In this document: positions 34,592 to 64,000 of the stretch, piece after piece
Layout: the number at the start of each line of letters is the position of its first letter
Numbering within the stretch: the first letter of the stretch is position 1
Source of the DNA: Actinomycetota bacterium
GTDB taxonomy: Bacteria > Actinomycetota > Actinomycetes > Propionibacteriales > Propionibacteriaceae
Reading direction: 5' to 3'
NCBI GenBank assembly: GCA_020161755.1
Contig: JAIUOS010000010.1
Span: 1 to 64,000 of the forward strand
DNA: 64,000 nt
Translations under genes and position numbers: made by a program
The notes under the pieces: generated by a model
The model's database searches: none
What the model was told of the DNA's origin: nothing
Seen by the model: the letters and a program-made list of their open reading frames with translations, nothing else

Positions 34592-34730
34592 GGGGACGGT
34601 TCTCCGATCCGCCAAATCCCGGCGGGTATCGGGGACGGTTCCTCGATCCGCCAGATTTCGGCGGGTATCGGGGACGGTTCCTCGATCCGCCACAATCCGG
34701 CGGAAAACGGGGGACAGTTCTCTTCGCCCC
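34592..34730 (+). repeat. REP-like array A (39-bp unit)
   Basis: Three complete tandem 39-bp units start at 34592, 34631 and 34670. Each has the leader GGGGACGGTTC, then an imperfect palindrome CCGCC-N7-GGCGG. A terminal part-unit beginning GGGGACAG follows. The first unit starts 3 nt after a stop codon. It is the same family as the arrays at 35551, 42252 and 43291. Confidence 0.9.
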
Positions 34731-34741
34731 GCCCGCAGCGC

Positions 34742-35470
34742 TCAGCGCAGCTTGAAGGCGCGGAACAGGACGGCGTTCGCCACGCCCAGAGCCTGTCCGG
34801 CCTGGGCCGTGAACCCGCCGATCATGTCGCGCGGCGCGGGGTGGCCGGGGATCGCGGCAAGGTAGCCGGCGTGCGCCTCCAGCGAGGCGATCCCCAGTTC
34901 CAGCGGCTCCCCGGAGATGTCGACGCCATGTGTCGGACGGCTGTGCCCGGCCACCAGCAGCCACGTGGGACCCCACTTCGGCAGGCCCTCCTCGGCGGCC
35001 AGTTCGGGGAAGACCCAGGTGTTGTCGGCGTCGCGGACGGCGTCCGCGCAGGCCAGACCGGCGGCCCGGTGGTCGGCCTGGTTGAGCCCTGCGATGAACT
35101 CGTCCTCCCACGACCCGGTGACCACGACGTCGGGACGGAACCGGCGGATCTCCCGCGCGATCGCGCGCCGCAGGTCGAGGGAGTAGACCAGCATCCCGTC
35201 CGGCCCGTCGAGCATCGTGAGGCTGCTCACGCCCACCGCGTCGCAGGCCGCCCGCTGCTCGCCCGCGCGCAGCGTCCGTGTCTCCTCCGGCGGGATCTGC
35301 ATGCCGGCCTCGCCCTGGGTGAGCAGCAGGTAGGCCACCTCGACGCCGCGTGAGGTCCAGGCTGCGACCGCGGACGAGGTCCCGTACTCGACGTCGTCGG
35401 GGTGGGCCACGACACACAGCACCTTGGCGAAGTCAGCGTCGGGAAGGAGTTCGAGCTTCGGAGCGTCCAT
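34742..35470 (-). CDS. PIG-L family deacetylase (MshB/BshB-like)
   Basis: A 242-residue zinc deacetylase. The metal motif AHPDDVEYG is near residue 22, with the third ligand H in NQADHRAAGLA; TGSWEDEFIAG is the second conserved block. Relatives remove acetyl groups from N-acetylglucosamine conjugates, including MshB in mycothiol synthesis. This gene is not in a mycothiol operon, so the substrate is open. It is framed by oppositely oriented REP arrays (34592 and 35551), as is the RAYT gene. Confidence 0.88.
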   Translation of the reverse strand: MDAPKLELLPDADFAKVLCVVAHPDDVEYGTSSAVAAWTSRGVEVAYLLLTQGEAGMQIPPEETRTLRAGEQRAACDAVGVSSLTMLDGPDGMLVYSLDLRRAIAREIRRFRPDVVVTGSWEDEFIAGLNQADHRAAGLACADAVRDADNTWVFPELAAEEGLPKWGPTWLLVAGHSRPTHGVDISGEPLELGIASLEAHAGYLAAIPGHPAPRDMIGGFTAQAGQALGVANAVLFRAFKLR

Positions 35471-35539
35471 GGGACCACGCTAGGACGCCGCCGCGCTCGC
35501 GGGCAGTGGCAGCACTGCCCGCGGGAACTGGGCGGACGG

Positions 35540-35706
35540 GATCCGTCCCCCTTCTCCGCCGAAATCTGGCGGATCGAAGAACCGTCCCCGATACCCGCCG
35601 AAATCTGGCGGATCGAAGAACCGTCCCCGATTTCCGCCGAAATCTGGCGGATCGAAGAACCGTCCCCGATATCCGCCAGAATCTGGCGGATCGAAGAACC
35701 GTCCCC
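35540..35706 (-). repeat. REP-like array B (39-bp unit)
   Basis: Four head-to-tail 39-bp units start at 35551, 35590, 35629 and 35668. On the minus strand each reads GGGGACGGTTCTTCGATC then CCGCC-N7-GGCGG. A part-unit GGGGACGGATC ends the array on its left. On the minus strand the array begins shortly after the stop of the serine hydrolase gene. Confidence 0.9.
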
Positions 35707-42251: not shown

Positions 42252-42343
42252 GGGGACGGTTCTCCGATCCGCCAGATTCCGGCGGAAATCGGGGACGGTT
42301 CTCCGATCCGCCAGATTCCGGCGGGCAAAGGGGACAGATCACC
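42252..42343 (+). repeat. REP-like array C (39-bp unit)
   Basis: Two 39-bp units start at 42252 and 42291, both GGGGACGGTTCTCCGATC followed by the CCGCC/GGCGG imperfect palindrome, then the terminal part-unit GGGGACAGATCACC. It begins 5 nt after the thrC stop codon. Confidence 0.9.
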
Positions 42344-42460
42344 CGCTCATCCACAGCCTTGGCGCTGGCGGAAAGAGTTATCCACAGTTCCTCCCAGCCC
42401 CCTCGCAATGCCGGCTGAGGTCGCCTTACGCTCCGTCCTTTGAGGAGAAAGGACGACCCC

Positions 42461-43243
42461 ATGCCTCGCCAAGCCCGCCGACGCGCCGCGTCCGGCATCT
42501 ACCACGTGATGATGCGCGGAGTGAACCGGGACGCCATCTTCCTCGAGGATCGCGACTGCGTCCGGTTCCTCGAATGCCTGGCGCTGGCCAAAGCCCCGTC
42601 CGGCTGCCAGGTCCTGGGCTACTGCCTGATGCCGAATCACGTTCACCTGATGCTGCGGGAGGTCGGCGAGCCGATCAGCGAGGTCGTGAAGCGTCTGGGC
42701 ATCCGCTATGCCGGGTGGTTCAACAAGAAGTACGGACGCGTGGGGCACCTCTTCCAGGACCGGTTCCGCAGCGTGCCGGTGGAGGACGATGCCCAGGTGA
42801 TCACCCTCCTGCGCTACATCTGGAACAACCCGGTCGAGGCGAAGCTTGTCGACGCGGCCGAGGACTACCCGTGGAGCAGCCGGCGGCTGCTCGGCCGGAA
42901 CTCACCGGTGCTGGACGGTGCATCGCTCACCCACTTGCTGACCGATGAGGTCCTCGCCGAGATCGCTCGACCCGCCGCCCCGCGTCCGGTGTTTCGGCCC
43001 GCCGGCCGGACGGCGCGCTTCACCGACGCTGAGGCTGAAGAGCTGCTGCGGCACGCGTCCGGCGCCGAGTCCCTCACCGAGTTCGCGCATCTCGATCCCT
43101 GGATGCAGGCGGCCGCGATCCGGGCGCTGCGGACGCGCTCCGTCCCGTACGACCAGATCGCGCGGCTCACCGGACTCAGCGCCACCCGGGTCAGGCGGAT
43201 CCATGTGGCCGGATCGAACGAGGCAGACAGCGGCGCCGCCTGA
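42461..43243 (+). CDS. REP-associated tyrosine transposase (RAYT, Y1 HUH family)
   Basis: A 260-residue Y1_Tnp/IS200-like protein; ATG 42461 follows GGAGAAAGGA. The HUH metal motif is H60-V-H62 in YCLMPNHVHLMLRE, and the catalytic tyrosine candidates are Y83 and Y91 in GIRYAGWFNKKYGRVGHLFQ. The RAYT block RYIWNNPVEAKLV and YPWSS follow at about residues 118-140. The C-terminal extension (RTRSVPYDQIARLTGLSATRV) is a helix-turn-helix. RAYTs nick and move single-stranded REP hairpins. Its neighbours are arrays of the presumed substrate in opposite orientation, so this is probably the enzyme that spread the GGGGACGGTTC units through the window. Confidence 0.9.
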   Translation: MPRQARRRAASGIYHVMMRGVNRDAIFLEDRDCVRFLECLALAKAPSGCQVLGYCLMPNHVHLMLREVGEPISEVVKRLGIRYAGWFNKKYGRVGHLFQDRFRSVPVEDDAQVITLLRYIWNNPVEAKLVDAAEDYPWSSRRLLGRNSPVLDGASLTHLLTDEVLAEIARPAAPRPVFRPAGRTARFTDAEAEELLRHASGAESLTEFAHLDPWMQAAAIRALRTRSVPYDQIARLTGLSATRVRRIHVAGSNEADSGAA

Positions 43244-43276
43244 GCCTCTCCTGCGCACGGACGCAGGGCGCGCCGC

Positions 43277-43446
43277 GGTGATGTGTCCCCATTACCCGCC
43301 AGAATCCGGCGGATCGAAGAACCGTCCCCGATACCCGCCACAATTTGGCGGATCGAAGAACCGTCCCCGATACCCGCCGGAATTTGGCGGATCGAAGAAC
43401 CGTCCCCGAAACCCGCCAGAATCTGGCAGATCGAAGAACCGTCCCC
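43277..43446 (-). repeat. REP-like array D (39-bp unit)
   Basis: Four 39-bp units start at 43291, 43330, 43369 and 43408, reading GGGGACGGTTCTTCGATC on the minus strand, then CCGCC-N7-GGCGG; the unit nearest the peptidase gene has one stem mismatch. The terminal part-unit GGGGACACATCACC is at 43277-43290. On the minus strand the array starts 4 nt after the M3 peptidase stop. Confidence 0.9.
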
Positions 43447-57519: not shown

Positions 57520-57663
57520 GATCCGTCCCCATCTCGGTCCGGGACCGAATCAGGAACCGTCCCCGATTCCGTCCGGGACCGGATTGGGGACGGTTCCGAA
57601 CTCGGTCCGGGACCGGATTGGGGACGGTTCCGAACTCGGTCCGGGACCGGATTGGGGACGGAC
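57520..57663. repeat. REP-like array E (34-bp unit, different palindrome)
   Basis: Units start with GGGGACGG at 57586, 57620 and 57654, a 34-bp period, and carry the palindrome CGGTCCGGGACCG instead of CCGCC/GGCGG. To the left of about 57566 the units are inverted (GAACCGTCCCC). The left end is a part-unit GATCCGTCCCC, as in array B. Same leader, different stem: a second REP class. Confidence 0.85.
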
Positions 57664-63908: not shown

Positions 63909-64000
63909 GGACCAAAAGGGGACTGTCCCCTTTTGGTCCGGTCAGGTGGACCGAAAGGGGACTGTCCCCTTTTGGTCCGGTCAGGTGGACCGAAAGGGGA
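63909..64000 (+). repeat. REP-like array F (39-bp period, running off the window)
   Basis: Units begin at 63909, 63948 and 63987, exactly 39 bp apart. Each holds the palindrome GGACCGAAAGGGGAC and GTCCCCTTTTGGTCC, then GGTCAGGT. The period equals that of arrays A-D, but the palindrome differs. It continues beyond the right end. Confidence 0.85.

What the first reader, a model, noticed from the sequence alone, without database searches (positions are those of the whole stretch)
42252..43446. RAYT gene framed by head-to-head REP arrays in an actinomycete
Seen directly: a Y1 HUH transposase (HVH motif, RYIWNNPVEA block) lies between two arrays of the same 39-bp unit in opposite orientation, and the innermost ends GGGGACAGATCACC and GGGGACACATCACC are inverted repeats of each other. 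Established: RAYTs act on REP palindromes that carry a conserved short 5' leader. Inferred: the GGGGAC leader is the cleavage-guide element here and this RAYT spread the arrays. Well-described REP/RAYT systems are mostly from gamma-proteobacteria; a tandem 39-bp version with a helix-turn-helix-tailed RAYT in a high-GC Gram-positive appears little described.
Basis: partly seen in the sequence, partly recalled or inferred. Interest (0 to 1): 0.87.

Follow-up and report, generated by a model that had tools for sequence, protein, structure and literature searches.

The report
GGGGAC-tagged repeats with their own transposase
An actinomycete genome carries hundreds of short hairpin repeats tagged GGGGAC that match the repeats framing a single-strand-cutting transposase gene, and that gene has in front of it the binding site of the protein that starts chromosome replication, which hints at how and when such repeats spread.

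Summary
Observation confirmed: a Y1 HUH transposase (42461-43243) lies between head-to-head arrays of a 39-bp GGGGAC unit. The same arrangement frames a PIG-L gene at 34592-35706.

The genome holds 286 exact GGGGACGGTTC, against 2 for the backwards pattern. Across 198 family genomes, 20 or more sites occur in 18 of 18 with a full-length RAYT and 7 of 180 without. All 21 genus RAYTs are framed head-to-head by GGGGAC. Unit arms are species-private: this genome's unit counts 123 here and 2 in 29 congeners; that of G002 counts 120 there and 5 elsewhere.

By motifs the protein is a subclass 2.1 RAYT (TIRYT), reported to lack REPs and to be absent from Actinobacteridae (PMC6006769). A GGGAC tag also frames 40 of 69 distant relatives, control 3.

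New: a DnaA box precedes 20 of 21 genus RAYT genes, 45-47 nt before a -10-like hexamer in 15; distant relatives lack it.

Reading: a REP/RAYT system with its own tag, perhaps tied to replication; a new variant of a known kind. Cleavage, mobility and DnaA binding are inferred.

The parts
42461..43243 (+). RAYT-1, Y1 HUH transposase, 260 aa, likely catalytic Tyr119, helical C-terminal domain
   Evidence: Pfam Y1_Tnp E 1.4e-13; NCBIfam REP_Tyr_transpos 66.6 bits, under its cut-off of 80; model pLDDT 89, best PDB match 4er8. Tyr119 is inferred from conservation
42252..42335 (+). left type A array: two 39-bp units plus terminal GGGGAC; starts 4 nt after the threonine synthase stop
43285..43446 (-). 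right type A array: four 39-bp units plus terminal GGGGAC; starts 4 nt after the M3 peptidase stop
42330..42343 (+). left inner end GGGGACAGATCACC, TIR-like, fits GGGGWSAS
   Evidence: consensus from PMC3733652 section 16
43277..43290 (-). right inner end GGGGACACATCACC, TIR-like, fits GGGGWSAS
42378..42386 (+). DnaA box TTATCCACA, the only exact copy in the window
   Evidence: DnaA binding inferred
42347..42355 (+). second, imperfect DnaA box TCATCCACA, 31 nt further upstream
42427..42432 (+). -10-like hexamer TACGCT, 46 nt downstream of the TCC of the box
   Evidence: promoter activity inferred
34592..34715 (+). type A array on one side of the PIG-L gene
35545..35706 (-). type A array on the other side of the PIG-L gene
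57525..57659 (.). type B array, 34-bp period, same GGGGACGGTTC core, GGACC-type arms
63909..64000 (.). type C array, GGGGACTGTCCCC core, cut by the window end

Best explanation
This is a REP/RAYT system with its own tag. A low-copy Y1 HUH enzyme of the subclass 2.1 (TIRYT) kind recognises single-stranded hairpins that carry GGGGAC and arms private to its own genome. It cuts at or next to GGGGAC and re-inserts the unit at another GGGGAC-like site, often just after a stop codon; repeated insertion (or slippage) at GGGGAC gives tandem arrays. Shown here: abundance, association with RAYT presence, head-to-head framing of every RAYT found in the genus, species-private arms shared by RAYT flanks and dispersed copies, a predicted HUH fold, and a DnaA box at a fixed place before the gene. 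Inferred: cleavage at GGGGAC, movement through single-stranded DNA (by analogy with IS200/IS605 and TnpAREP), and control of RAYT expression by host DnaA.
For: 286 GGGGACGGTTC sites against 2 for the backwards pattern. In the genus, 31-344 sites in 14 RAYT-bearing and 0-82 in 16 RAYT-less genomes. In the family, 18 of 18 against 7 of 180 genomes with 20 or more sites. 21 of 21 genus RAYTs framed head-to-head, 248 of 5000 random placements. Arms private to species: 123 sites here, 1 each in G008 and G016, 0 in 27; 120 in G002, 5 in G001, 0 in 28. RAYT-less G014 has an empty junction of 30 bp where this genome has 1203 bp. GGGAC up and GTCCC down in 40 of 69 distant RAYT loci, backwards motif 3, opposite orientation 7. 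Fold match to the RAYT-REP complex 4er8, E 2.9e-7.
Against: Seven RAYT-less family genomes keep 20-330 sites; G018 has 82 at 100% completeness, while G142 (281) and G143 (330) are 84-89% complete. The type C core occurs 31-48 times in G012, G016 and G020, whose RAYTs found are of other kinds, and only 3 times in G013, which has an adh-side RAYT framed by it. In G001 many sites have no recognisable arms. The empty site is a single case. Genomes are related and the counts were not corrected for kinship. No movement or cleavage was observed.
Confidence: 0.72

Rival explanations
1. The units are host-maintained 3'-end elements (for example two-way terminators or mRNA stabilisers) that multiplied by recombination and slippage; the RAYT merely sits among them.
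For: 19 of 38 array starts lie 1-16 nt after the stop of a long coding-like frame, random positions 1.9%, isolated GGGGAC 14 of 203. 25 of 28 type A runs face an opposite GGGGACGGTTC within 1.1 kb. A PIG-L gene is framed the same way. Units persist in some RAYT-less genomes.
Against: Arms are private to each genome and equal to those at its RAYT; 21 of 21 RAYTs are framed; 9 of the 16 RAYT-less genus genomes have 10 or fewer sites without adjustment for size.
Confidence: 0.12
2. The units were spread by another or an earlier enzyme, and present RAYTs are latecomers that were captured between units.
For: Type C units in genomes without a RAYT of that kind; RAYT-less G140, G142 and G143 with 75-330 sites; several unit types in one genome with two RAYTs.
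Against: Every RAYT of the genus is framed in the same polarity, and a GGGAC tag frames the distant relatives too.
Confidence: 0.1
3. RAYT-1 with its inner ends is an ordinary insertion sequence, and the arrays are debris of its transposition.
For: The inner ends are inverted repeats and G014 has an empty junction.
Against: At most three RAYTs per genus genome, diverged from one another (46-69% identity to the first of the 16 aligned); 10 of 21 lie beside the threonine synthase and/or M3 peptidase genes (my reading); far more units than genes.
Confidence: 0.05

Closest known systems
TIRYT / TIRtron (Di Nocera 2013, PMC3733652) = mostly TnpAY1 subclass 2.1 (Quentin 2018, PMC6006769; Bertels group 1)
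   Same: NHVH, Y-x-x-NP type motif, SS after the core, C-terminal HTH-like domain, flanking inverted repeats that fit GGGGWSAS, some of them repeated in the genome
   Different: Published survey found no REP-like sequences with subclass 2.1 and none of these genes in Actinobacteridae; here hundreds of species-private units, long tandem arrays, and a DnaA box before the gene
Canonical GTAG REP/RAYT (REPtron), for example E. coli rayT
   Same: Y1 HUH RAYT between repeats in opposite orientation, hairpin units, high copy number, places at gene ends, best fold match 4er8
   Different: Tag GGGGAC instead of GT[AG]G, tag often inside the hairpin, tandem arrays, longer protein; positions that contact the guide in E. 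coli (E100, H101, R104) fall on S104, V105, E108
IS200/IS605 insertion sequences
   Same: Y1 HUH fold
   Different: Low copy number, conserved places, NP after the tyrosine motif, many more units than genes

Membership tests
RAYT / TnpAREP (class 2) | Y1_Tnp domain with HUH and Y---NP motifs | tested here: met
   5 of 21 genus copies read HAH instead of HVH/HIH
RAYT / TnpAREP (class 2) | Low intragenomic copy number with diverged copies | tested here: met
   1-3 per RAYT-bearing genus genome; 46-69% identity to the first of 16
RAYT / TnpAREP (class 2) | Gene flanked by repeats dispersed through the same genome | tested here: met
Canonical GTAG REP | GT[AG]G at the 5' foot of the hairpin | tested here: not met
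   column make-up of 56 type A units shows no such tetranucleotide before the stem; tag is GGGGAC
TnpAY1 subclass 2.1 / TIRYT | NHVH, F-Q and SS motifs, HTH-like C-terminal domain | tested here: met
   motifs by eye against the table in PMC6006769; HTH_23 is under its cut-off and reaches E 0.01 in 4 of 30 members
TnpAY1 subclass 2.1 / TIRYT | Flanking inverted repeats that fit GGGGWSAS | tested here: met
   inner ends GGGGACAG and GGGGACAC
TnpAY1 subclass 2.1 / TIRYT | Place in the subclass 2.1 clade of a tree with published members | not tested
   no published member could be named among the fetched loci; the tree has only E. coli rayT as a reference, on a very long branch
IS200/IS605 insertion sequence | Several near-identical copies at different sites | tested here: not met
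   one genome per species only
DnaA-like C-terminal domain (Bac_DnaA_C) reported for part of subclass 2.1 | C-terminal domain related to DnaA domain IV | tested here: not met
   no Bac_DnaA_C match among 30 members; hhalign with the C-terminal 100 residues of E. coli DnaA, probability 0.2%

The most novel reading that the evidence does not exclude
Host DnaA controls these RAYT genes through boxes phased to the promoter, so that GGGGAC repeats move when replication starts and lagging-strand single-stranded DNA appears. GGGGAC units with subclass 2.1 RAYTs would then be a third, pan-phylum tag class of REPs beside GTAG and CGTC, wired in this family to the replication cycle.
Probability: 0.4. 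Interest if true: 0.82.

Novelty: new variant of a known kind. Interest (0 to 1): 0.66.

Why it matters
[quoted passage not shown] Here one genus offers 21 natural enzymes in 14 genomes, private abundant repeats for those examined, and genomes with and without the enzyme. Enzyme-unit specificity, the cleavage site, and a possible link between repeat movement and replication initiation all become directly testable.

Tried and rejected
GGGGAC alone as the signal: rejected, not enriched in the window. The RAYT as the only thing framed head-to-head: rejected, a PIG-L gene and short spacers are framed too. One core per RAYT locus: only partly held; the adh-side RAYTs L031, L040 and L046 carry the GGGGACWGTCCCC core and form a clade (SH-aLRT 97, quick tree), L051 at the same place does not, and G012, G016 and G020 have the core without such a RAYT. 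The C-terminal domain as a DnaA-like binder of the box: rejected as a homology claim. DnaA boxes as a feature of the whole subclass: rejected, 1 of 70 distant loci on the gene strand and 2 on the other, control windows 1.5% (there the pattern was exact TTWTNCACA, stricter than the one-mismatch scan). Compensatory changes within type A stems: uninformative, the stem bases hardly vary. PHROGs gave no match. A first script missed five RAYTs because they read HAH, so A1 and A2 lack those five. Column conservation inside the box is partly by construction, since rows were found with that pattern; searches do not share that flaw. One search counted one cluster twice; the recount of 49 distinct runs is. 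One search's output was cut in the middle.

Full report
What is there. The window lies on contig C10 of a 4.08-Mb genome. The nearest named relatives of its RAYT are actinobacterial MAGs labelled Propionicimonas, Micropruina and HGW-Actinobacteria-5. The RAYT gene starts at ATG 42461, just after GAGGAGAAAGGA, and encodes 260 residues. It stands between convergent threonine synthase and M3 peptidase genes in a 1203-bp junction. Each array starts 4 nt after a stop codon.

Genome-wide units. GGGGACGGTTC occurs 286 times, the pattern read backwards twice. The parts read (about 204 kb plus loci of the first 30 listed sites, not the whole genome) show three main types: A (39-bp period, this finding), B (34-bp period, GGACC-type arms) and C (GGGGACWGTCCCC core, 147 sites in the genome), with rarer ones. 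In 49 distinct tandem runs the spacings are 39 (57 times), 34 (33), 40 (6) and a few others. GGGGAC is followed by GGTTC at 91 of 103 inner positions but at 13 of 49 last positions, where GGATC (12) is nearly as common. Of 28 type A runs, 25 face an opposite GGGGACGGTTC within 1.1 kb. Of 38 run starts, 19 lie 1-16 nt after the stop of a long coding-like frame; random positions do so in 1.9%, isolated GGGGAC in 14 of 203.

Association with the enzyme. Pfam Y1_Tnp finds 21 RAYTs in 14 of 30 genus genomes; a profile of the RAYT finds the same 14 genomes. Site counts are 31-344 with and 0-82 without a RAYT. In the family, 18 of 198 genomes have full-length RAYTs and all have 20 or more sites; 7 of the other 180 do. 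Three of those 180 (G104, G105, G141) have weak C-terminal matches only and were counted as without. Kinship was not corrected for. All 21 genus RAYTs have GGGGAC upstream and GTCCCC downstream; random placements in the window give both in 248 of 5000.

Specificity. A type A pattern gives 123 sites in this genome, one each in G008 and G016, none in 27 others. The unit that frames one RAYT of G002 gives 120 sites there, 5 in G001, none in 28 others. Dispersed copies thus share private arms with that genome's RAYT flanks. This was counted for these two units only. In 20 stretches of G001 the match is weak. Type C is less tidy: G012, G016 and G020 have 31-48 cores without a RAYT of that kind, and G013, which has one, has 3. 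Relics or missing contigs would explain this; that is inference.

Empty site. RAYT-less G014 has the same two flanking genes 30 bp apart, with no unit between them. RAYT-less G018 has what looks like a decayed unit at the 3' end of the peptidase gene.

The protein. The model (pLDDT 89) matches the E. coli RAYT-REP complex 4er8 best (E 2.9e-7) and has a helical C-terminal domain. In the profile alignment with 4er8 the guide-contact positions E100, H101 and R104 (named in PMC6006769) fall on S104, V105 and E108; the serine is invariant in 30 aligned sequences. That fits a different tag, but is inference.

Shape of the unit. Of 15 units that I picked and folded with DNA parameters, 12 have z under -2 against letter shuffles. 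GGGGAC lies in the upper stem or loop in 9, at the 5' base of the stem in 4, outside in the two type A examples. The 49 distinct type A units keep a TCCGCC/GGCGGR stem and GTTC after GGGGAC (GGGGAC and CCGCC were required by the search).

Beyond the family. Of 74 distant RAYT loci fetched (mostly Clostridia and Prevotella by title) 69 had enough flank: GGGAC upstream with GTCCC downstream in 40, opposite orientation 7, backwards motif 3. The longest flanking inverted repeat holds GGGGAC or GGGGWSAS in 24 of 69, the longest direct repeat in 6. Of 396 genomes drawn from the phylum 98 match the RAYT profile; in this genome's class those are this genome and two very weak matches.

A DnaA box. TTATCCACA or a one-mismatch form lies upstream of 20 of 21 genus RAYTs (13 exact), on the gene's strand; none lies in the 200 nt downstream, and random 200-nt windows have it in 9 of 1500. 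It is the commonest 9-mer of these upstream regions, 13 of 21. A second TCCACA-like site lies 29-32 nt further up in 13 of 21, and a -10-like hexamer 45-47 nt downstream in 15 of 21. In 204,129 bases of this genome TTNTCCACA occurs three times, twice before its two RAYTs. Of six other family RAYTs two have it at the same place and strand, one on the other strand, three not. Distant relatives lack it. High-affinity boxes are TTATCCACA in E. coli and TT(G/C)TCCACA in actinomycetes (PMC4285127, passages). That DnaA binds here is inferred.

Known and new. PMC3733652 (section 16 and passages) describes TIRYTs with GGGGWSAS inverted repeats, some in repeated families, in dimers or clusters. PMC6006769 (Results section) files most of them in subclass 2.1, found no REP-like sequences there and only IS-type genes in Actinobacteridae. 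PMC8266576 was seen in passages. Bertels 2017 is not held; I know its groups only through PMC6006769. Searches for RAYT with Actinobacteria, TIRYT, REPIN with RAYT, IS200 with GGGGAC, Y1 transposase terms, and RAYT with DnaA listed no paper that, by title and abstract start, describes this system; the library holds open-licence papers only. I call it a new variant of a known kind; the DnaA box is the most novel part.

Noticed in passing
window 34592-35706: A PIG-L deacetylase gene is framed by head-to-head type A arrays just like the RAYT. Whether the gene was captured or the arrays merely mark its two borders is open.
   Followed up: partly
window 42347-42386; L174 13865: DnaA boxes before both RAYT genes of this genome; the third TTNTCCACA in the parts read is at L174 2957, context not looked at.
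   Followed up: yes
L031 (G000:C10:95022-95744, minus): A second RAYT of this genome, outside the window, framed by type C units (GGACCAAAAGGGGACWGTCCCCTTTTGGTCC), whose core has 147 sites in the genome.
   Followed up: partly
L039, L041, L042, L045, L049: Five of 21 genus RAYTs have HAH in place of HVH/HIH at the HUH motif.
   Followed up: no
L218 (G013, M3 peptidase 3' end): The stop codon TAG overlaps the tag (TAGGGGACGGTTCC), so a unit starts inside the stop codon.
   Followed up: no
G140, G142, G143 (same family, genus g19): 75, 281 and 330 GGGGACGGTTC sites without a detected RAYT; the last two genomes are 84-89% complete.
   Followed up: no
G179 and G187 (genus g28): Five and four RAYT profile matches each, the most in the family, with 25 and 177 GGGGACGGTTC sites; their own unit types were not looked at.
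   Followed up: no
L016 end and L175 end: Two contig ends of the genome (C1 and C10) share a type C plus type B stretch, which suggests that such repeats broke the assembly there.
   Followed up: no
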